Shown here: positions 5,718 through 62,429 of the stretch, in pieces
How the letters are laid out: each line of letters begins with the position of its first letter
Position numbering within the stretch: position 1 is the first letter of the stretch
NCBI RefSeq assembly: GCF_900111995.1
Contig: NZ_FOKF01000017.1
Coordinates: forward strand, 1-64,000
Direction: 5' to 3'
Origin: Collimonas sp. OK607
Lineage (GTDB): Bacteria > Pseudomonadota > Gammaproteobacteria > Burkholderiales > Burkholderiaceae_D
Length of the DNA stretch: 64,000 bases
Translations under genes and position numbers: made by a program
The notes under the pieces: model-generated
What the model was told of the DNA's origin: nothing
Seen by the model: only the letters and a program-made list of their open reading frames with translations
Databases searched by the model: none

Positions 5718-7462
5718 TGCTCCTGTCCGGTCCACTCGATTTCTGAAATTTCAATCACAGTTGGCGTGCTGGTTGCCACCGCCAGTTGCAAGGCGCTGGT
5801 CAGCTCCGTTGCTGTTGCTGCGTGTTGAGCCGCGCAGCCGAAGCCGCGTGCAATCGCCAGGAAATCCGGCGTGTAGATATCGACGCCAACCGGTTCGATG
5901 GCGCGGTTCTGCATGTATTTCTTGATTTCTCCATAGCCGCTGTTATTCCACAGCAGGATGATCACCGGGACGCCGGCTTCCACCGCACTGGCCAGTTCCG
6001 GCAAGGTGAACTGCAAACCGCCGTCGCCGATCAGGCATACCACCGGTGTGCCGGCAGTGGCGAGTTTGGCGCCGATTGCGGCCGGTAATGCATAACCGAG
6101 CGTGCCGTATCCGGTAGATGAATTGAACCAGCTGCGCGGAGTGCGCGCATCGAAGGTGATATTGCCGGTATATACCGGCTGGGTAGAGTCGCCGACATAG
6201 ATCGCATCCGGCAGCGTGCTCGCCACCACTTCCAGCATGCGATGCTGCATGTGTGCCGCATGGTCGAGGCTGGAGTCGATTTCGCGTCGCAAAGCGGCAA
6301 CCCGGTTGCTGCCCCACGAGACATCGGGAAGGACCGCATGCAAAAGCGGCTCGGGTTGCAGTGACAACTGCTGCAACAAGCCTTGCAGCGCGCTTCCGGT
6401 ATCGGACAGCAAGGCAAGCGTGGCGGGATAGTTACGCGCCAGCTGCTGCGCATCGATGTCGATGCGGATCAGTTTTCCGGGTATGCGGAAGCCGCCGTCG
6501 AATACGGTGTCATAGTCGGTTTCGCCGAGTTCGGTGCCGACTGCCAGCACTACATCGGCTTCACACACCAGGGCGCGCGTTGCAGCCGTAGATTGGGTCG
6601 AACCGAGCAACAGCGGATGCTGCGGCGGCAGCAGACCTTTAGCGTTGATGGTGAGTGCCGTCGGCGCCTGCAGACGTTCTGCCAGTTGCTGCAATTCGAT
6701 ACCGGCATTGACGGCGCCGCCGCCGGCCAGGATCAAGGGCCGCCTGGCTTGGTGCAGCATGGCGGCAGCCTCGGCTATTCGGCGCGGATCGGCGCAGGGT
6801 TTAGAGGTGCGGGCTGGCATGGCGGTAGACAGATGCGCGGCAGGAGCGACGATCACATCCAGCGGGATTTCAATATGCACCGGGCGCGGGCGGGCGCTAT
6901 CGAACACAGCGAAAGCGCGCGCCAATACGGCAGGAAGTTCATCGGCGCTCATCAGCGTATGCGAGAACGCGGTCATACCGGCAAAAACGCCACGTTGCGA
7001 CGGCAACTCATGCAGCATGCCGTTGCCATTGCCCAGGTGCTGACGGGCGTTGACGCTGGAAATGACCAGCATCGGGATCGAATCGGCATAGGCTTGCGCC
7101 ATGGCGGTAGCGATATTGGTCATGCCGGGGCCGGTGATAATGAAGCAGACGCCGGGTTTGCCACTGACCCGCGCATAGCCGTCGGCCATGAAGCCGGCGC
7201 CCTGCTCGTGACGCGGTGTGATGTGGCGCATGCTTGAGCGCGCCAGTCCGCGATATAGCTCAACGGTATGGACGCCGGGAATGCCGAACACCAGTTCGAC
7301 GCCATAGTTTTCCAGCAGCTTGACCAGCACCTCGCCGCAAGTTGCCTCTGCGGGTGCGATCGGGAACGATGCAGATGCGGATGCAGATGTGGATGAACTG
7401 CCGTCAGCGGCGACGGTCTTGTCAATCTCAGTACTCTCGAGTCGTTTCATGTTGGGTTTCAT
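5714..7462 (-). CDS. Thiamine-diphosphate 2-oxoacid decarboxylase, AruI-like
   Basis: A protein of about 582 residues of the acetolactate synthase/decarboxylase superfamily. The N-terminal region GIPGVHTVELYRGL and RHEQGAGFMADGYARVSG (with the activating Glu) resembles Pseudomonas AruI, which decarboxylates 2-ketoarginine to 4-guanidinobutyraldehyde. The C-terminal ThDP/Mg site is GDGGLQFTLPELA followed by NNSGYGE. The start is uncertain: an upstream ATG at 7516 would overlap the permease gene by 47 bp, so the ATG at 7462 (MKPNMKRLES) is preferred, with 7450 possible. A low-complexity Ser/Ala stretch follows. The gene begins 7 bp after the permease gene and overlaps the ALDH gene. Acetolactate synthase activity is less likely because no ilvN-type subunit adjoins it. 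Confidence 0.82.
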   Translation of the reverse strand: MKPNMKRLESTEIDKTVAADGSSSTSASASASFPIAPAEATCGEVLVKLLENYGVELVFGIPGVHTVELYRGLARSSMRHITPRHEQGAGFMADGYARVSGKPGVCFIITGPGMTNIATAMAQAYADSIPMLVISSVNARQHLGNGNGMLHELPSQRGVFAGMTAFSHTLMSADELPAVLARAFAVFDSARPRPVHIEIPLDVIVAPAAHLSTAMPARTSKPCADPRRIAEAAAMLHQARRPLILAGGGAVNAGIELQQLAERLQAPTALTINAKGLLPPQHPLLLGSTQSTAATRALVCEADVVLAVGTELGETDYDTVFDGGFRIPGKLIRIDIDAQQLARNYPATLALLSDTGSALQGLLQQLSLQPEPLLHAVLPDVSWGSNRVAALRREIDSSLDHAAHMQHRMLEVVASTLPDAIYVGDSTQPVYTGNITFDARTPRSWFNSSTGYGTLGYALPAAIGAKLATAGTPVVCLIGDGGLQFTLPELASAVEAGVPVIILLWNNSGYGEIKKYMQNRAIEPVGVDIYTPDFLAIARGFGCAAQHAATATELTSALQLAVATSTPTVIEISEIEWTGQEQ

Positions 7463-53519: not shown

Positions 53520-53661
53520 AGCTGGGATCTCGCTACAATTGGCGTGGCGAATGTCTGCCACAGGCCAAAAGCGGACGTGCAATCGCTATCGAAAAAAATG
53601 TTAGCGCACACGCCCTTGCAGACAATCAAAGAAGTTAAGAAATGCTAATCAAAGAACGCAC

Positions 53662-53910
53662 CTACCGATAGAAAGGTTCGACAGTGCCTTTTACTTTAGT
53701 CATTAAGGGGTTGCCCTTCCGATCTAGCGCCTTCCCGGCCGGGACTTTAATCCATCCCTCGCTGATGCAATATTCCTCAACATCGAAGTGCTCTTTATTG
53801 TTAAGTTTAATACCAACATCATGTTCAAATATGGCAGCGTTATAGTAAGGGCTGCGAGGATCGACTGAGAGCCGATCGGGAAGTGGAGGGCGGTTTTGGA
53901 TATCGTTCAT
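53662..53910 (-). CDS. DUF3297 family protein
   Basis: An 82-residue protein with the full family pattern: PPLPDRLSVDPRSPYYNAAI, VGIKLNNKEHFDVEEYCISE, GWIKVPAGKALDRKGNPLMT and KGTVEPFY. The start at MNDIQ fits the family; an upstream ATG adds five unlikely residues. Function is unknown; the family is widespread in proteobacteria. It reads opposite to its neighbours. Confidence 0.9.
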   Translation of the reverse strand: MNDIQNRPPLPDRLSVDPRSPYYNAAIFEHDVGIKLNNKEHFDVEEYCISEGWIKVPAGKALDRKGNPLMTKVKGTVEPFYR

Positions 53911-54144
53911 GGCTACAATTATCAACTATAAGATTAACCAAAACAATTTTTTTTGCGTGGTTTTCCTAAATCACTTGGTTGACCGCACTCAGCCAAAAGC
54001 TGCCAGCTCATGCTGGCCCGCCAAAGCATGCTGTTCCCGCAAGGTAGCTGTGTTATAAATTCAACTTATTTCGGCCGTGTGTTTGCGTGGTTTGTTTTTG
54101 TTAAGCCTGTCGAGTGTTTTGCGATTTATAACAAGTTAGGCGTC

Positions 54145-54687
54145 ATGAAACATCTTGCACTGGCTGTCTTCCTCGCACTCCCGCACCTAGCGTTTGCCGG
54201 TTCGTCCCCATTCGCGCGGGCGGAACTGCTCAGCAACGGAGCCACGTTGAGTTTGCAACACCATGACGGCAGCAAGCTTGTTGCGCCAAAGTTCGATGAT
54301 CAGGACTTCTTCGACAAGCCGGCCATCGCAAGCAATTCCTCCTATGTCGGCTGGCTCGCTCTGTTTCCAGATCGCGGGGCTTCATACTCCCAGCCGTTGT
54401 ATCTCGTAATTCTGGATCGGTCCAATCGTGTCCATCGCTTTGAAGGCAAGTTCGGCATGGTTTTCGGATGGTGCTTTACAGAAGACGGGCGTTCTGTCGT
54501 GTACAAGTACAGTTTCCCGCACGGCACGACTCCGATCGCCTTTGACATGCGCCGCATAGAGGATGAAAAGCTTCTGCGCCGGTTTGAACTCGACCCGATC
54601 GCCCCTGAAGACGATGAGGACGCAGTTCTTCAAGCAAAAACTCCAAGATGGGCGAGGTGCGCGGCAAAAAGCGCACGCCGGCAATGA
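54145..54687 (+). CDS. Secreted hypothetical protein
   Basis: A 180-residue protein with a clear signal peptide (MKHLALAVFLALPHLAFAG). The mature part, with DGSKLVAPKFDDQDFFDKPA, SQPLYLVILDRSNRVHRFEG and GWCFTEDGRSVVYKYSFPHG, matches no family I recognise; it may form a small beta-rich domain. The start at 54145 is set by the signal peptide, since upstream in-frame codons run into AT-rich non-coding sequence. The gene sits between DUF3297 and the IS110 element in a region likely to have been acquired. Confidence 0.7.
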   Translation: MKHLALAVFLALPHLAFAGSSPFARAELLSNGATLSLQHHDGSKLVAPKFDDQDFFDKPAIASNSSYVGWLALFPDRGASYSQPLYLVILDRSNRVHRFEGKFGMVFGWCFTEDGRSVVYKYSFPHGTTPIAFDMRRIEDEKLLRRFELDPIAPEDDEDAVLQAKTPRWARCAAKSARRQ

Positions 54688-54846
54688 TGTTCCGAACATC
54701 TTCACAAGGCGCTTGACCCATGCCTGCGCTGGTTCTTTCGACGGGATTGATCTTCTCAGTGCCGGTATCTTCATAACCATCGAAGTTGCGCGTCGAGGAG
54801 TTGGGTGAGCCGGTGTCAATGGCGGCTTCGGGTCGAGGCTAATGGA

Positions 54847-56208
54847 ATGGTCGCCCCTTCCCGAAACGGCATTGACGTGCCACAGTGGAAATTGCGATGT
54901 TCCATTAACCGAGAGAGGCGACCAAAATGAAGATTACAACAATCGGACTTGATTTGGCAAAATCCGTTATTCAGGTTCATGGCGTGAATGAACATGGAAA
55001 GGTCGGATTAAAAAAGACACTAAAACGTGATCAAGTATTGCCATACTTTGCGAATATGGCACCGTGTTTAATTGGAATGGAGGCTTGTGGCAGTGCGCAT
55101 TATTGGGCTAGGAAATTACAAACGCTAGGCCACACCGTCAAGTTGATGGCACCACAGTTTGTCAAACCGTACGTCAAGACGAACAAGAACGACGCGGCCG
55201 ATGCCGAAGCAATCTGCGAAGCAGTAACACGACCGACCATGCGATTTGTTGCGCTCAAGAACGGCGAGCAACAGGCCATACTGTCCTTGCACCGAGCGCG
55301 GCAAGGGTTCGTCAAGGCGCGCACTGCGCAGGCCAATCAGATTCGCGGCCTTCTGTCGGAATACGGCATCGTCATGGCGCAAGGGATGAGCCACATTGCG
55401 AAACGCTTGCCTGACATTCTCGAAAATAGCGAGAGTGATCTGCCTGGCATCTTCCGTCAATTGCTGCAGCGACTTGGCGAGCATTTGAAGGAGCTCGATC
55501 GTCAGGTGGGTGAACTGGAAGTACAAATCCGAACTTGGCATCAGCAGAACGAAATGAGCAAGAAATTGGAAAAAATTCCCGGTATTGGTCCAATTACGGC
55601 AAGCGCACTAGTGGCCTCCATTGGCGATGCGAAAAGTTTTAAAAACGGCCGACAGTTAGCCGCCTGGCTGGGACTGGTACCCAGGCAACACTCCAGCGGC
55701 GGCAAACCAACGCTGCTAGGGATCAGCAAGCGTGGTGATTCCTATCTGAGAACGTTGCTGATTCTTGGTGCCCAATCCGCCCTCCGCGTGGCCGCACGCA
55801 AACTCGATCATGCATGCAGCTGGCTAGCCAAGTTAATGGCACGACGTCATCAGAACGTGGCTGCGGTAGCACTTGCGAACAAGAATGCTCGTATTGTTTG
55901 GGCGCTGCTGGCGCACAACCGTGAGTACCGGACAGATTTGGCGGTATAGCTACAGCGTAGTTAACTTGGAAGGAATACTCCACCGATTGCTCAGGCGATG
56001 ATGAAGTGATGGCAAGACAGGTCAGACCGTGGCAGGCAAAATCTAGTTTACACAGGGAGCGCGAAGCTCGAGAGGCTGATTAGAAACCTGCCAGCATATT
56101 CCATCAGGGACAGAGGCTGTAGCCTCAATCGAAAGTCCGGATCTATGGCTGCAATCTACACCTGCTTAACATCATTGATTTAATGCTTGGCAAAATGGGG
56201 GCGACCAT
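54847..56208. mobile_element. IS110-family (IS1111-like) insertion sequence
   Basis: The element encloses a full transposase gene. ATGGTCGCCCC at 54847-54857 and GGGGCGACCAT at 56198-56208 are 11-bp inverted repeats, 70-80 bp before the gene and about 250 bp after it. Such subterminal repeats are typical of the IS1111 subgroup, in which true ends lie a few bases further out and no target duplication is made. The true outer limits are therefore uncertain by several bases. The long 3' non-coding part (55950-56208) fits the family; no second gene is visible there or in 56209-56389. Confidence 0.8.
54927..55949 (+). CDS. IS110-family transposase
   Basis: A 340-residue transposase. The N-terminal DEDD RuvC-like domain shows TTIGLDLAKSVIQVHGV and GMEACGSAHYWARKL with KTNKNDAADAEAI; the C-terminal Transposase_20 part shows IPGIGPITASALVASIGDAK and FKNGRQLAAWLGLVPRQHS. 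It appears intact. AGAGAGGCGACCAA precedes the ATG. It belongs to the element defined by the flanking 11-bp repeats. Confidence 0.95.
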   Translation: MKITTIGLDLAKSVIQVHGVNEHGKVGLKKTLKRDQVLPYFANMAPCLIGMEACGSAHYWARKLQTLGHTVKLMAPQFVKPYVKTNKNDAADAEAICEAVTRPTMRFVALKNGEQQAILSLHRARQGFVKARTAQANQIRGLLSEYGIVMAQGMSHIAKRLPDILENSESDLPGIFRQLLQRLGEHLKELDRQVGELEVQIRTWHQQNEMSKKLEKIPGIGPITASALVASIGDAKSFKNGRQLAAWLGLVPRQHSSGGKPTLLGISKRGDSYLRTLLILGAQSALRVAARKLDHACSWLAKLMARRHQNVAAVALANKNARIVWALLAHNREYRTDLAV

Positions 56209-56389
56209 CTATGTGTAAAAACGTAAAATCATGTCTCAGGTGAGCGCACCCGTCTTCGACCCAATTTAGAAACGGACCGGCACGTCAGACATTCGCACGG
56301 AGCACGGCGATAATAAAAAGATGTTCAACGACTGCGACAGGCCAGCTCAATTAGCAGAAGCAGTATCTCGTAGAGATGCAAAAAGGCCC

Positions 56390-57514
56390 TCAGGCCCTCA
56401 TTGCTGCGATCAATCGATGAGTGCCTAGTATTCGCATGATCCGCTTCAGATTGTAAGCCAGTACGTGCAAGCTCATTTCGGTGCTCACCCGTGGTAGTGA
56501 CTTGGTCAGGAAATGAGTTGCCCCCATCCACGCCTTGAGCGTGCCAAACGGATGCTCGACGGTCTGCCGACGTAAGCGGGCAGGATTGGGCCAGGCATTG
56601 AAGCGCCGCTGCATTCGCTCGAGTACATCTTCGTGTTCCCAACGGGCGATACGCCGGTTGGTGCCGGTAGTACATTGCGCCTTGATTGGGCATGCCGGGC
56701 AGGCAGACGACCAATATTTATGCCACCGCAACCCGTGTTCGATTGTTGTGAAACGCCTGATAGCTCGTTGTCCGGCCGGACACTGGTACTCGTCGCTTTG
56801 CGCCAGATAAATGAAATCCGTTTTATCGAAGAGGCCTTGTGCCCGGTTGCCCGAAGTCAGAGGTTTCGGTACCAGCGGCGTCACGCCAAGCTTCTCGCAT
56901 GCGAGAATTTCCGCTCCGCTGAAATAGCCGCGGTCCGCGACCACAGTCAAATCTTGCTTTCCGATTGCGTTTTGCGCTTGTGCCGCCATCGACGCCAGCT
57001 GCGTTCTGTCATGCCCGACATTGGTTACCTCATGCGACACGATCAGATGGTTTCTGGTATCGACCGCAGTCTGGACGTTGTAGCCCACCATGCCTGTGCC
57101 ACGGCCACTCGTGGCCATGGATCTGGCATCCGGATCTGTCAGAGATATTTGCTTATCTGGCGTCTGCTGCAACTGCTTGTTGATCTCGTTGAATCCTTCG
57201 ATCTGCTTCTTGATGGAGGCAATTTTTTCCTTCAGATGCGAGACGCGGGCCTCAGGCACTAACTCCGGCTGGCGGTCGGCACGATCAAGCTCCTCGAGGT
57301 AGCGTGCAATGTTGGCTTCGAGTTGCTCGATTCGTGCCTGAAGCTTCCTGTCGGTAAAGTTCTTATCGCGATTGTTGACCGCCTTGAACTTGCTGCCATC
57401 GATGGCGATATAGGCCACCGTCACCTGGTGACCGGCAGCCTGCAAGCCTTCCGCCAGGGCCAGAAATGGCAGGATGTCGCCGACGCTTCCCCAAGTCTGG
57501 ATGCCAATTTTCAT
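56390..57514 (-). pseudogene. Chimera: start of a UDP-glycosyltransferase gene fused to a truncated IS1182-type transposase
   Basis: The first 35 residues (MKIGIQTWGSVGDILPFLAL then AEGLQAAGHQVTVAY) are the N-terminus of a GT1-type (MGT/sterol glucosyltransferase-like) enzyme. From about residue 36 the sequence becomes an IS1182-family transposase (IAIDGSKFKAVNNRDKNFT, GYNVQTAVDTRNHLIVSHEV, VADRGYFSGAEIL, EHPFGTLKAWMG), without its N-terminal domain. The junction lies near 57405-57412. The 374-residue open frame is continuous, with AAGGAAG before the ATG, so a fusion protein could be made. The rest of the glycosyltransferase gene is not seen nearby, so it was lost. The TetR gene ends 28 bp upstream and probably formed an operon with the lost gene. 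Confidence 0.82.
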
Positions 57515-57542
57515 TGCGTATCTTCCTTGTCTGGTTTGAACA

Positions 57543-58163
57543 TCATTTTGTCAAAAGAGGGTAGTGGGAATGCAATAGCGTACCGACCATTGCCACTCGC
57601 GCATCCACCTTGAATTCGCTATCTCGAAGACCGACCGTCAAACCCAGCAAGTAAAACGACCAGAACCCAATGGCGACTTCCATGGCGTCGTCGATCGGTG
57701 CTATTTCTTTTCTTTGTGCTGCGTCGATGAACAGGAGGCCGATCTTCTCCAGAAATGCCATCGTTTGTGTATGCACAATCTCACCGGCCGGCCCTGCAAG
57801 AAATAGCGATTCTTTCACCAGCACTCTGGAAAGCGCCTGGTTTTTGGCGTAATAACCGTAAATATCCGAAAGGACATGTTTTAGCTGCTGGTGGATATTT
57901 TTCTTGGGTAATGTCTTGAACGCGCGGGCAAGTATTGCCCCGATATCTTCCTCAAAGGCTGCTACCAAAATTGCAGGCTTGTCGGGGAAGTGTTTGAACA
58001 GGGTGCCGAGACCAACCCCGCAATGGCTGGCCAGCTGGCGCATCGTGGTCAGGTCGTACCCATGCTGTTGAAAGAGGACGTAGGCGGATTCAAGGATCAA
58101 GCGCCGGGTTTCTTCTTTCTGAAGATCTCTACGGGTTGCTTTCTGATTTTCCCTAAGCATCAT
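57543..58163 (-). CDS. TetR/AcrR-family transcriptional regulator
   Basis: A 206-residue repressor. The N-terminal helix-turn-helix is RRLILESAYVLFQQHGYDL, TTMRQLASHCGVGLGTLFKH and FPDKPAILVAAF. AAGGAAG lies eight bases before the first of two ATGs (58163). It precedes the remains of a glycosyltransferase gene in the same direction, and a palindromic operator lies in its upstream region. Having lost its partner gene, it may now regulate only itself. Confidence 0.88.
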   Translation of the reverse strand: MMLRENQKATRRDLQKEETRRLILESAYVLFQQHGYDLTTMRQLASHCGVGLGTLFKHFPDKPAILVAAFEEDIGAILARAFKTLPKKNIHQQLKHVLSDIYGYYAKNQALSRVLVKESLFLAGPAGEIVHTQTMAFLEKIGLLFIDAAQRKEIAPIDDAMEVAIGFWSFYLLGLTVGLRDSEFKVDARVAMVGTLLHSHYPLLTK

Positions 58164-58201
58164 TAGGCGCTTCCTTTTTTATCTCACGAATTTGATTTAT
58201 C

Positions 58202-58233
58202 GGTGAACATGAACCTTTAGTGAACATGTTCAC
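58202..58233 (-). promoter_or_regulatory. Candidate TetR operator
   Basis: GTGAACATGTTCAC (58220-58233) is a perfect 14-bp palindrome, and a second GTGAACATG occurs at 58203-58211, 17 bp away. They are 40-70 bp upstream of the TetR start, in the expected position for autorepression. Confidence 0.7.
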
Positions 58234-58279
58234 CTTAAATCGAAAAAAAATGGCGCGTCAATAGTCGCGCCAGAATGTC

Positions 58280-58300
58280 CCTTGAGGCAAAGCCTCAAGG
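58280..58300. other. Nine-pair hairpin with AAA loop
   Basis: CCTTGAGGC and GCCTCAAGG flank an AAA loop. It lies between the TetR upstream region and the 3' end of the DUF1993 gene, which reads leftward into it. No T tract follows on either strand, so it is not a standard terminator; it could stabilise the DUF1993 transcript. Confidence 0.5.
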
Positions 58301-58334
58301 TTCTGAATTACGCAATTACTTAGTGGGCTTAATC

Positions 58335-58844
58335 TTAATACGCACCCATGAAATCACGCTTGCCGATTTCCACGCCGTTGTGGCGCAGGATGTCATAAGC
58401 GGTGGTCACGTGGAAGAAGAATTGTGGCAGGCCATAGCCCAGCAGGTAAGTCTGGCCGCTCAGTTTCTTTTCTTTCGGTGTGTCAGGACGTAATACGATT
58501 TCGAGCGTTTCGCTGCCGTCGATTTGCGCTGCGCTCAAGCCGTCGATAAATGCCAGTGTCTTCTTGATACGGGCCTGCAGGTCGGCGAAAGTTTGTTCGT
58601 TGTCTTCGTACGCAGGAACTTCGGCGCCGGCCAGGCGGGCTGGCACGCTTTTGGCAAAATCTGCGGCGATCTGTACCTGGCGGATCAGCGGGAACATGTC
58701 CGGGAACAGGCGTGCTTGCAGGAACGCGTTAGGGTCGATTTTCTTTTCGGTCGCGTGTGCTTCGGCCTTTGCCAATACGTCGTTGAGCGCCGTCAGCATC
58801 TGTTTGAAAACGGGAATCGAAGCGCTGTGCATGGAGATGGTCAT
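58335..58844 (-). CDS. DUF1993 family protein
   Basis: A 169-residue helical protein. MHSASIPVFKQMLTALNDVL, ARLFPDMFPLIRQVQIAADF and HVTTAYDILRHNGVEIGKRD are typical of DUF1993, distantly related to the DinB four-helix fold. AAGGA lies before the ATG. A metal-dependent enzyme function is possible but unproven. It is a single gene with no clear partner. Confidence 0.88.
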   Translation of the reverse strand: MTISMHSASIPVFKQMLTALNDVLAKAEAHATEKKIDPNAFLQARLFPDMFPLIRQVQIAADFAKSVPARLAGAEVPAYEDNEQTFADLQARIKKTLAFIDGLSAAQIDGSETLEIVLRPDTPKEKKLSGQTYLLGYGLPQFFFHVTTAYDILRHNGVEIGKRDFMGAY

Positions 58845-58970
58845 GAGTGTTCCTTGGTTGGTGTTGCAGAGTGTTCGGGAAAGATGGTGTGACTAAGTGG
58901 GGGTGACGAACTTGCGTGATTATAGTGCTTGCTTGAAGAGTTTGCTGCCGGCGTCTAAATACAGTAAACG

Positions 58971-59441
58971 TTAAAGTCCCAGCAGTTTTTTCTTGGTGCT
59001 GATCCATTCCGAGCGCGAGATAAGTCCTTGCTTATATTGTTCCGCCAGTTTGTCCAGCTGTTCAAAATCTACGGGCGCACGCGTGAGTACCTGGGAGGCT
59101 GCGATCTTTTTCTCGATCTCGCTTTTCAGATGCGCGAATTGAGTGAATTGCCTGCGGTTGAACAGCACCGTATTTTCATCGTTGGCCGCGCGAATAAGCG
59201 TGGTGTCGTTTTGCGTACCGCTGACTAAATAAAAGCGGATATAACCATTGGTCAAAAGTCCGGGCAGCTCGATGCGAACCCCGCTCAGGGCGGAAATCGG
59301 AATGTCTTTATCGCGGTTCCTGGATTGGGTCAGTCGCGCCATGGCGCCGGCGCGTTTTATCTGGACTCGGTCGCTGAGCAGCGTTACCTGGCCATTGACG
59401 CCCCGTAACTGTATTTCCACCTGTATGACCGCTGGCTCCAC
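58971..59441 (-). CDS. DUF4429-like and SHOCT-domain protein, GTG start
   Basis: A 156-residue protein. The N-terminal part (GVNGQVTLLSDRVQIKRAG, PISALSGVRIELPGLLTNGY, IRFYLVSGT) resembles the PH-like DUF4429 domain; the C-terminal DFEQLDKLAEQYKQGLISRS, EWISTKKKLLGL is a SHOCT motif. The start is a GTG at 59441 with AAGGA eight bases upstream. The frame remains open upstream through a Lys/Glu-rich stretch with a threefold repeat, but no standard start codon is found in that extension. Function is unknown; SHOCT motifs are thought to assist oligomerisation. Confidence 0.75.
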   Translation of the reverse strand: MEPAVIQVEIQLRGVNGQVTLLSDRVQIKRAGAMARLTQSRNRDKDIPISALSGVRIELPGLLTNGYIRFYLVSGTQNDTTLIRAANDENTVLFNRRQFTQFAHLKSEIEKKIAASQVLTRAPVDFEQLDKLAEQYKQGLISRSEWISTKKKLLGL

Positions 59442-59581
59442 GCTTACTTTCCTTCTTTCTTTCTTACCTTCTTTTTTGCCTTCTATTTCAATCTTCTCAG
59501 CGCCGATTTTCTCAGTACCGATTTCCTCAGTGCCCCCGGCTGCCCATGGTCAGATAATGTAACACCGGCTTGCCAAGTAAT

Positions 59582-59617
59582 AAAGACGCCGCACCGAATT
59601 TACGGTGCGGCGTCTTT
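59582..59617 (-). terminator. Strong terminator of glnS
   Basis: AAAGACGCCGCACCG and CGGTGCGGCGTCTTT form a perfect 15-pair stem with a six-base loop. On the minus strand TTTATTA follows; on the plus strand TTTT follows, so it may act in both directions. It lies 44 bp after the glnS stop. Confidence 0.9.
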
Positions 59618-59660
59618 TGCATGCCGAAAACAGGCGCGAGCAGTAGTTCAAACCGGCTAG

Positions 59661-61436
59661 TTACTTGCCCCAGCTGTCTTTCAAGGTGACAGTCCGGTTG
59701 AATACCGGCTTGCCAGGCTTGGAATCGATACGGTCGGCGACGAAGTAGCCATGCCGTTCGAACTGATAGCGCTCTTCTGCCTTAGCGTCCTTCAAGCCAG
59801 GCTCCAGGTAGGCCTTGATCACTTGCTTGGCGTTCGGATTCAAGGCGGCCTTGAAATCCTTGCCGCCGGCATCCGGATGCGGATCCGTGAACAGGCGGTC
59901 GTACAGCCGCACTTCTGCTTCTACCGCATGGGCAACGCTGATCCAGTGAATGTTGCCTTTGACCTTGTAATTGGCGCTGCCTTCGGTGCCACTTTTGCTG
60001 TCCGGAAAGTATGTGCAATGCACGGCGATAACCTTGCCATCCGCATCTTTTTCAAAGCCGGTGCATTCGACTACATAACCATGGCGCAGACGGACCCGGC
60101 TGCCTGGTTTGTCGGCGGTGGGCGGGAACAGGCGGAAATATCCCTTGACCGGGGTTTCCATGAAATCTTCCTGTTCGATCCACAATGTGTTGCTGATTGG
60201 AAAGTGACGCAGTGCAGTGGCGTGCTCGGGATGTGCAGGCGGATAGACCGGTGCGTGACATGCCACGGTCTCGCCTTCCGGGAAATTATCGATGATCAGT
60301 TTCAGCGGCTGCAGTACGGCACTGGCGCGCGGCGCCTTGGGATCGAGATCTTCGCGCAGGGCGCCTTCCAGCGAACTCATGTCGATCCAGCCGTCGGACT
60401 TGGTGACGCCGGTGCGATTGCAAAACAATTGCAGCGATTCCGGCGTAAAGCCACGGCGGCGGATACCGACCAGGGTCGGCATACGCGGATCGTCCCAGCC
60501 GTCGACGATGCCTTCATCCACCAGTTGGCGCAGCTTGCGCTTGCTGGTGATTACGTAGGTGACGTTGAGCCGCGAGAATTCGTACTGGTGCGGCACCGGT
60601 TTTTGCAGGAAGCCGGCGCTGCTTAATTGCTCCAGCAGCCAGTCGTAGAAAGGGCGGTGATCCTGGAATTCCAGGGTGCAGATCGAGTGCGAAATATTTT
60701 CCAGCGCATCCGAAATCGGGTGCGTGAAGTCGTACATCGGATAGATGCACCATTTGTCGCCGGTACGGTGATGATGGGCATGACGGATCCGGTAGATCGC
60801 CGGGTCGCGCAGGTTCATGTTGGGCGACGCCATATCGATCTTGGCGCGCACGATGTGTTCGCCATCCTTGAATTCGCCAGCCTTCATGCGGCGGAACAGG
60901 TCCAGCGATTCGTCCGCCGAGCGGTTGCGGAATGGCGAATCCTTACCCACTTCGCCGAAATTACCGCGATTGGCGGCCATTTGTTCGGCGCTTTGGCTAT
61001 CGACATAGGCCAGGCCGGCAGTGATCAGGTGTTCCGCCATGGTGTACAACTGGTCGAAGTAGTCGCTGGCGAAGTAAAGATGTTCGCCGGTACTGTCTTT
61101 CCAGTCGAAACCCAGCCACCGAACGCTGTCGATGATGGTGTCGACATATTCCTGTTCTTCTTTTTCAGGATTGGTGTCGTCGAAACGCAAATTGCAGCGG
61201 CCGGCATAATCGCGCGCCAGGCCGAAGTTGACGCAGATCGACTTGGCATGGCCGATATGCAGGTAGCCGTTGGGTTCCGGCGGAAAGCGGGTGATCACCT
61301 GCGGTAACGGCTGTCCCTGGCTGTCCTTGCGCTCGGCGTAGGCGCCGGCGGTCAGATCGGTTTCAATGATGCCGCGCAAGAAATTGGACGAGGCTGGTGC
61401 AGGCGGGGTGTGGCCGTTAGTGTGATCGGTGCTCAT
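59661..61436 (-). CDS. glnS: Glutaminyl-tRNA synthetase
   Basis: A 591-residue class I synthetase charging tRNA-Gln. HIGH motif is in FPPEPNGYLHIGHAKSICVN, the KMSKS-like loop in YVITSKRKLRQLV, with LRFDDTNPEKEEQEYVDTI and YDFTHPISDALENISHSICT also typical. The C-terminal beta-barrel anticodon domain is complete (GNIHWISVAHAVEAEVRLYD). An N-terminal extension of about 18 low-complexity residues is present. It is monocistronic with its own terminator. Confidence 0.96.
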   Translation of the reverse strand: MSTDHTNGHTPPAPASSNFLRGIIETDLTAGAYAERKDSQGQPLPQVITRFPPEPNGYLHIGHAKSICVNFGLARDYAGRCNLRFDDTNPEKEEQEYVDTIIDSVRWLGFDWKDSTGEHLYFASDYFDQLYTMAEHLITAGLAYVDSQSAEQMAANRGNFGEVGKDSPFRNRSADESLDLFRRMKAGEFKDGEHIVRAKIDMASPNMNLRDPAIYRIRHAHHHRTGDKWCIYPMYDFTHPISDALENISHSICTLEFQDHRPFYDWLLEQLSSAGFLQKPVPHQYEFSRLNVTYVITSKRKLRQLVDEGIVDGWDDPRMPTLVGIRRRGFTPESLQLFCNRTGVTKSDGWIDMSSLEGALREDLDPKAPRASAVLQPLKLIIDNFPEGETVACHAPVYPPAHPEHATALRHFPISNTLWIEQEDFMETPVKGYFRLFPPTADKPGSRVRLRHGYVVECTGFEKDADGKVIAVHCTYFPDSKSGTEGSANYKVKGNIHWISVAHAVEAEVRLYDRLFTDPHPDAGGKDFKAALNPNAKQVIKAYLEPGLKDAKAEERYQFERHGYFVADRIDSKPGKPVFNRTVTLKDSWGK

Positions 61437-61593
61437 GGAGAATTGGTTTATACGCTTTGCTGAATGGTAGGAATGTGCTTCATTCTACCGTAGCGAGAGC
61501 ATTTTCACCCGCAGCGGGGCAGATTTTGTTGCACCGCAAATACGGGACTGTGCAAATAGAATATTTATCAAAAAGATATTTTTATGGTTGAAA

Positions 61594-61623
61594 AGTCCTG
61601 GCCGCGCCACCGCGGCCAGGACT
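61594..61623 (-). terminator. Terminator of the LytS/LytT-type operon
   Basis: AGTCCTGGCCGCG and CGCGGCCAGGACT form a perfect 13-pair stem with a CCAC loop. On the minus strand TTTTCAAC follows. It lies six bases after the response-regulator gene. Confidence 0.85.
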
Positions 61624-61628
61624 ATTGC

Positions 61629-62429
61629 TTACATCTGGCGGAACAGATGGGCAAACACGCGGCTTACCGTGGGCATCTCTGTGCGGCCGCGCAGCTTGAG
61701 CGTCAGTTTGCCGCTTTCGTCGCGTATCGCCATCTGGATCGACTGGTGGTTGACGATGGTGCCGCGATGTACCTGCCAGAACTGCCTGCCGTCGAGCTGA
61801 GGCAGCAATTCCTTGAGACTGGTGCGGATCAGCGACTCGCTGTCGGCGGTGACGACATTAATATATTTGTCGGTGGCTTCGAAATAGATCACCTCGCTGA
61901 TCGGGATCATGCGGATCTGGTTGCCGACTGCGGCCCGGATCACAGTCAGCGGTTCGACGCCGGCGCTGGTTTTGGGCTGCATGTTGCGCAGTTGACCGAT
62001 CAGGTTATCCAGCGCGGCATTGCCGTCGTCATTCTGTTGCAGGCGTTGCTGCAGGCGGGCGATGGTCCTGCCCAGCCGCGCGTCGCTGATCGGTTTTAGC
62101 ACGTAATCGGCGGCGGCATGCTCGAAGGCGCTGATCGCGTATTCGTCGTAGGCGGTAACAAACACGATCAGCGGGAAGGTTTCATTCTCAGGCCATTCTT
62201 CGGCCAGTTCCTGGGCCGCTTCGAGTCCGGTCTTGCCAGGCATTTTGATATCCAGGAACAGGATGTCGGGACGTTGCTTGAGGGTTTGTTCAACCACCGC
62301 CTGGCCGTTGTCGACGCTGGCAATGATCTGCAACTCCGGCCACAGACGCTGCAATGCCTGCAGCAGCGCGGCCGCCAGAATCGGTTCGTCTTCGGCAATC
62401 AGGGCGCGTAAATTGGATGATGTTGTCAT
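61629..62429 (-). CDS. LytTR-family response regulator
   Basis: A 266-residue regulator. The receiver domain has acidic residues in LIAEDEPILA, the phosphorylation Asp in ILFLDIKMPGKTG and the Lys in DYVLKPISD. A coiled linker leads to a LytTR DNA-binding domain (IPISEVIYFEATDKYINVVT, WQVHRGTIVNHQSI). It overlaps the sensor kinase gene by four bases. It resembles AlgR/YehT types that bind direct repeats; its targets are unknown. Confidence 0.92.
   Translation of the reverse strand: MTTSSNLRALIAEDEPILAAALLQALQRLWPELQIIASVDNGQAVVEQTLKQRPDILFLDIKMPGKTGLEAAQELAEEWPENETFPLIVFVTAYDEYAISAFEHAAADYVLKPISDARLGRTIARLQQRLQQNDDGNAALDNLIGQLRNMQPKTSAGVEPLTVIRAAVGNQIRMIPISEVIYFEATDKYINVVTADSESLIRTSLKELLPQLDGRQFWQVHRGTIVNHQSIQMAIRDESGKLTLKLRGRTEMPTVSRVFAHLFRQM

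What the first reader, a model, noticed from the sequence alone, without database searches (positions are those of the whole stretch)
56390..57514. Open chimeric frame of a glycosyltransferase start and a truncated IS1182-type transposase
The first 35 codons are unmistakably a GT1 enzyme, the rest an IS1182 transposase lacking its N-terminal domain. The join keeps the reading frame and a good ribosome site, so the host regulator and promoter could now express a fusion protein. The remaining glycosyltransferase sequence is missing, so a deletion accompanied or followed the insertion.
Basis: partly seen in the sequence, partly recalled or inferred. Interest (0 to 1): 0.6.

Follow-up and report, generated by a model that had tools for sequence, protein, structure and literature searches.

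The report
IS scar fused to glycosyltransferase stub
In a Collimonas soil bacterium, jumping DNA landed beside a sugar-transfer gene and a deletion then happened to join the first 35 codons of that gene in frame to a broken transposase, which looks like an ordinary genomic scar with no sign so far of a new function.

Summary
The chimeric frame is real. On the minus strand, 57514-56390 encodes residues 1-35 of a GT28/GT1-type glycosyltransferase joined in frame to residues 145-483 of an IS1182-family transposase. Collimonas antrihumi and Collimonas sp. OK307 keep the intact tetR-glycosyltransferase (416 aa) pair. The join lies 500 bp inside the IS, at a 3-bp microhomology (57409-57411), not at an IS end. 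It therefore looks like a microhomology deletion rather than a transposase product. No other piece of this glycosyltransferase was found in the genome. The IS has lost both working ends: the left 500 bp are deleted, and the right inverted repeat is split by an IS1111-type (IS110-family) element at 54840-56211. Of 12 relatives of that element, 5 have a similar target on both sides and 2 lie beside an IS1182 transposase gene. TetR, the gap and the ribosome site are kept, so the fusion could be expressed, but nothing shows that it is or that it works. The exact junction occurs in 1 of 15 Collimonas genomes, and an in-frame join has a 1-in-3 chance. Verdict: an ordinary pseudogene-like scar.

The parts
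57543..58163 (-). tetR-family regulator, intact, 206 aa
   Evidence: 92% and 91% identical in G001 and G014
57410..57514 (-). glycosyltransferase codons 1-35 (stub)
57409..57411 (.). junction, 3 bp (TAT on +) shared by glycosyltransferase and IS
   Evidence: junction sequences
56390..57409 (-). transposase codons 145-483 and stop, IS1182 family, in frame with the stub
   Evidence: 334 of 339 residues identical to full copy L046; NF033551
56212..57411 (-). remnant of the IS1182 element; left 500 bp missing
54840..56211 (+). IS1111-type (IS110 family) element inside the right inverted repeat of the IS1182 element
54927..55949 (+). transposase of the IS1111-type element, 340 aa
   Evidence: NF033542, 383.4 bits
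54835..54839 (.). last five bases (GAGGC on +) of the IS1182 right repeat, cut off by the IS1111-type insertion
54831..54834 (.). remaining copy of the 4-bp target repeat (GGTC on +)
   Evidence: RACC repeats of the full copies; position
53551..57408 (.). block that replaces glycosyltransferase codons 36-416 and about 60 bp beyond, relative to Collimonas sp. OK307

Best explanation
A decayed locus. Ancestrally the order was tetR - glycosyltransferase - SnoaL-like gene, as in Collimonas sp. OK307. In this lineage unrelated pieces came to lie between the glycosyltransferase and the SnoaL-like gene, among them a 1.7-kb IS1182-family element reading in the same direction as tetR. An IS1111-type element (IS110 family) inserted into the right terminal repeat of that IS. 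A deletion between the inside of the IS (500 bp from its left end) and codon 35 of the glycosyltransferase, at 3-bp microhomology, removed the left end of the IS, codons 36-416 and whatever lay between. By a 1-in-3 chance the join kept the frame. Shown: the parts, the boundaries, the missing sequence and the intact relatives. Inferred: the order of events (the IS1111-type insertion may be before or after the deletion), the repair pathway, and the lack of function.
For: Intact tetR-GT loci in G001 and G014, colinear with the window down to 57409 and, in G014, again from 53550 leftwards. Fusion residues 36-374 are 334/339 identical to residues 145-483 of a 483-aa copy in G008. IS ends with a 4-bp RACC repeat in 6 of 7 full copies. 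Full IS at 1848-3551 of L046 and junction base at 2348, so 500 bp are lost. Microhomology read from the junction sequences. IS1111-type element bounded by GGTC-GAGGC at 54831-54839 and TGTGTAAAAACG at 56212. Only the stub answers to the glycosyltransferase in the own genome. Exact junction string once in 15 Collimonas genomes.
Against: The frame is open throughout and keeps the three residues that I take, from memory of the DDE fold, as catalytic; regulator, gap and ribosome site are intact, as a selected fusion would also show. No reads or second strain were available. The left boundary (53550) and the source of 54005-54816 are not explained. The intact state with both glycosyltransferase and IS1182 side by side has not been seen.
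Confidence: 0.88

Rival explanations
1. A domesticated host-transposase fusion: TetR-controlled expression of a protein with the catalytic domain of an IS1182 transposase but without its N-terminal part, perhaps interfering with IS1182 copies.
For: Open frame, retained regulator, gap and ribosome site; catalytic part almost identical to that of an intact copy.
Against: Exact junction in 1 of 15 Collimonas genomes. The DUF772 part is lost. The stub has V at position 11 where 4 of 7 intact homologues have D and 3 have H. The identity of the transposase part is explained by the recent age of the IS. The predicted model is too poor to judge folding (mean pLDDT 39.5), so folding is untested.
Confidence: 0.05
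2. The block 53551-57408 came in as one already rearranged piece by recombination and replaced the glycosyltransferase, rather than arising by insertion and then deletion in place.
For: Both edges (53550 and 57409) are abrupt, and 54005-54816 has no match in the 14 other Collimonas genomes at the sensitivity.
Against: The right edge lies inside an IS, and the block is a patchwork of pieces with their own ends, which favours stepwise insertions.
Confidence: 0.06
3. Assembly error at a repeated IS.
For: Draft genome in 90 contigs, with IS1182 relatives at or near the ends of six contigs.
Against: The two sides share only 3 bp, too short for a k-mer misjoin, and the junction lies in the middle of a 110,964-bp contig.
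Confidence: 0.02

Closest known systems
IS1182-family insertion sequence (NCBIfam NF033551)
   Same: Transposase catalytic part; terminal repeat GAGGCTGTGTRAAAACGC as in full Collimonas copies
   Different: Window copy lacks 500 bp at the left end and transposase residues 1-144; its right repeat is split
tetR-linked 416-aa glycosyltransferase of Collimonas
   Same: First 35 codons, upstream tetR and 28-bp gap
   Different: Codons 36-416 missing
IS1111 group of the IS110 family; IS4321/IS5075, which target terminal repeats of Tn21-family transposons (title seen in the reference list of PMC11187229; that paper itself is not held)
   Same: Transposase type, non-coding region downstream of the gene, subterminal repeats, insertion inside another element's terminal repeat
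   Different: The target here is the end of an IS1182-family element
Deletion next to an insertion sequence making a chimeric ORF (general knowledge, recalled)
   Same: IS fragment joined to a truncated host gene
   Different: The join lies inside the IS at microhomology, not at its terminus

Membership tests
IS1182 family | Transposase matching NF033551 above its cut-off | tested here: met
   306.8 bits against a cut-off of 270, profile 138-487 of 488
IS1182 family | N-terminal part with DUF772 domain, as in the full copy | tested here: not met
   No DUF772 in the fusion at E up to 1; present at residues 61-129 of L046. A truncated remnant, not an intact member
IS1182 family | Two terminal inverted repeats and a target repeat on both sides | tested here: not met
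   Left end deleted; right repeat split by another IS; one copy of the target repeat kept at 54831-54834
GT28/GT1-type glycosyltransferase | N-terminal plus C-terminal domain | tested here: not met
   Only residues 1-35 remain; the intact orthologue has EryCIII-like_C and UDPGT matches, its GT28 N-terminal match being below the cut-off (23.8 against 26.2 bits)
IS1111 group of IS110 (element 54840-56211) | IS110-type transposase | tested here: met
   NF033542, 383.4 bits, cut-off 140
IS1111 group of IS110 (element 54840-56211) | Non-coding region downstream of the gene and subterminal inverted repeats | tested here: met
   262 bp downstream, matched in 19 of 145 family genomes including its own and aligned in 11 relatives; ends GGAATGGTCGCCCC and GGGGGCGACCATC read
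IS1111 group of IS110 (element 54840-56211) | seekRNA from that region guides target choice | not testable with these tools
   Only the conserved region and a predicted fold (z -2.19, 2 of 200 shuffles as good); no RNA data
Functional host-transposase fusion | Fusion conserved in relatives | tested here: not met
   Exact junction in 1 of 15 Collimonas genomes
Functional host-transposase fusion | Fusion expressed and acting | not testable with these tools
   No expression data; structure model uninformative

The most novel reading that the evidence does not exclude
A newborn host-transposase fusion protein under TetR-family control that keeps the DDE catalytic core of an IS1182 transposase without its N-terminal part and modulates IS1182 activity in the cell.
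Probability: 0.04. Interest if true: 0.5.

Novelty: new member of a known kind. Interest (0 to 1): 0.15.

Why it matters
It is a clean example, readable against intact relatives, of how nested insertion sequences erode a locus and leave an open chimeric frame that family models name an IS1182 transposase. It is a reminder that an in-frame join and a good ribosome site do not by themselves indicate a functional fusion.

Tried and rejected
Adjacent deletion made by the transposase at an IS end: rejected, because the join is 500 bp inside the IS. The 35 residues as a normal IS1182 N-terminus: rejected; 7 of 7 full copies and the contig-71 fragment start MKRFVQGT(D/N)R after a few residues, and the more distant copies in L002, L137 and L139 start MTRYIQGSDR, MARFICGADR and MKRFIEGRDR. 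A full copy of this IS in the same genome: none in the assembly; the 5' fragment on contig 71 stops at the base that corresponds to window 57212. Dating by the 200-bp overlap with that fragment: abandoned, since the overlap is also identical in two G008 copies and differences between copies are patchy. Structure of the fusion from an alignment of three sequences: mean pLDDT 39.5, uninformative, not searched further; of three viral-contig relatives two went into that alignment and L138 was left out. Integron attC reading of 54114-54141: 26-bp matches in G149 (two exact, one 96%), two at 96% in G030 and a longer one at 87% in G066, but neither strand folds better than shuffles (179 and 151 of 200 as good); left open. 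The one-mismatch junction match on contig 60 lies in what looks by eye like an aminotransferase gene: taken as chance. Literature: the searches listed no paper that I recognised as reporting this fusion or IS1111-type elements in IS1182 ends; I saw listings and abstract starts, plus passages of PMC11187229, so this is weak evidence of absence.

Full report
What was checked. The frame at 57514-56390 on the minus strand encodes 374 aa. Residues 5-32 match Glyco_transf_28 and the rest matches DDE transposase domains; NCBIfam places residues 35-361 on positions 138-487 of the IS1182 model.

Intact relatives. A search of 15 genomes of the genus (own included) found close tetR orthologues, 91-92% identical, only in G001 and G014 besides the window's own genome; the next best matches were 36% identical or less. 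Both carry tetR followed by a 416-aa glycosyltransferase with the same 28-bp gap. DNA identity with OK307 is about 93% from 57409 to 62102 and resumes at 53550 leftwards. In OK307 the glycosyltransferase ends at 5844 of L045, the convergent SnoaL-like gene ends at 5936, and homology resumes at 5905; so codons 36-416 and about 60 bp beyond are gone in the window, and 53551-57408 stands in their place. The C. antrihumi contig ends just after the glycosyltransferase, so it cannot show the left edge. A search of the own genome with the C. antrihumi glycosyltransferase found only the stub. In a sample of 145 genomes of the family, 6 had a match at E 1e-40 or better; G014, which has the gene, is not in that list and was presumably not drawn.

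The IS. Seven full copies occur in two other Collimonas genomes (five in G008, two in G014). Six of the seven have a 4-bp direct repeat RACC outside terminal repeats GAGGCTGTGTRAAAACGC; the seventh (L052) has no matching repeat on the right. All seven have a 496-codon open frame with MKRFVQGTDR near its start; one was translated as 483 aa with DUF772 at 61-129. Fusion residues 36-374 equal residues 145-483 of that copy with 5 differences in 339. The first 500 bp of the IS are missing. The junction reads GTGGCCTATATCGCC; the glycosyltransferase relatives read GTGGCCTATACC and GTAGCCTATACC, and the IS reads ACCGATATCGCC, so three bases are shared. A join inside the IS at microhomology is what general end-joining or slippage would give; a transposase would be expected to act at the IS end (established knowledge). 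Frame keeping has a 1-in-3 chance. A listing (PMC5678879, abstract start only) reports a different, inverted-repeat-replacing way of transposition for IS1272, which I recall as an IS1182-family element, so the 4-bp repeat need not hold for the whole family.

The other end. In the window the IS right repeat stops at TGTGTAAAAACG (56212), while GGTC-GAGGC lies at 54831-54839. Between them is an IS110-family element (transposase 54927-55949, NF033542) with the non-coding part downstream, as in the IS1111 group described in PMC11187229 (passages). Of 12 related loci examined, 5 (L107, L108, L109, L110, L116) have flanks within two mismatches of GAGGC on the left and TGTGTRAAA on the right, and L076 has the left flank only, its right end not being held; the other 6 have different flanks. 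In 2 of the 12 (L109, L110) an IS1182 transposase gene starts right beside the element; in the other 10 none was found within the stretches held. So some members of this group insert in ends of IS1182-like elements, and the window's IS is one such case. The outer flank, GACCCGAAGC on the minus strand, resembles the right flanks of 4 of the 7 full copies (GACCCAAAGCGG twice, GACCCGAAGCGG, AACCCTAAGCGG) and not those of the other 3.

Could it work? TetR, the gap and the ribosome-site-like stretch are kept. A consensus scan of 56200-58400 found no minus-strand sigma-70-like promoter (1 site in all, on the plus strand; 1.6 expected) and a terminator-like site on the minus strand upstream of tetR. 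Of 13 substitutions peculiar to the window copy against five other copies, 9 are at third positions, but that branch includes its time as an active IS, so this says nothing about the fusion. The stub has V at residue 11 where 4 of 7 intact homologues have D and 3 have H. The exact junction string occurs once, in this genome alone among 15. The structure model failed. I therefore hold it to be an untested, probably functionless scar.

Left edge. Between the IS1111-type element and the SnoaL-like gene lie an ORF without Pfam match (54010-54687), whose stretch 54005-54816 has no match in the 14 other Collimonas genomes, and a DUF3297 gene unit (53563-53993). The DUF3297 gene occurs in 10 of 15 Collimonas genomes at 11 places. 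Its DNA is 90-95% identical, and flanks of up to 1.5 kb are unrelated in most pairs, with exceptions of 53 to 1059 bp, which is odd for so similar a gene. I did not find how it moves.

Noticed in passing
window 53563-53993 (DUF3297 gene 53662-53925 -); L056-L064, L067: A unit of about 431 bp with a DUF3297 gene is found in 10 of 15 Collimonas genomes at 11 places with mostly unrelated neighbours, as if the small gene moves as a unit. Seven of the 10 other places match over 424-432 bp with the same edges; G014, G002 and G003's second place match over 391-412 bp with one edge shorter.
   Followed up: partly
window 54840-56211; L107-L110, L116, L076: IS1111-type elements of this and other genera insert at GAGGC^TGTGTRAAA-like sites, which is the terminal repeat of IS1182-family elements; 2 of 12 loci have an IS1182 transposase gene beside them.
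   Followed up: partly
G000 contig 71 (L048 at 5253); G003 (L053 at 2416-2417); window 57211-57212: Two truncated IS1182 copies in two genomes break at the same base: the 5' fragment on contig 71 ends there and an internal deletion in G003 ends there.
   Followed up: no
window 54114-54141: Stretch ending TTATAACAAGTTAGGC in front of an ORF, with exact or near-exact 26-28-bp copies in G149 and G030; resembles the end of an integron attC site (recalled motif), unproven.
   Followed up: partly
window 56390-57411 against L046, L054, L047: Differences between IS1182 copies are patchy (in this part L046 and L054 differ only within 57188-57392), suggesting exchange between copies.
   Followed up: no
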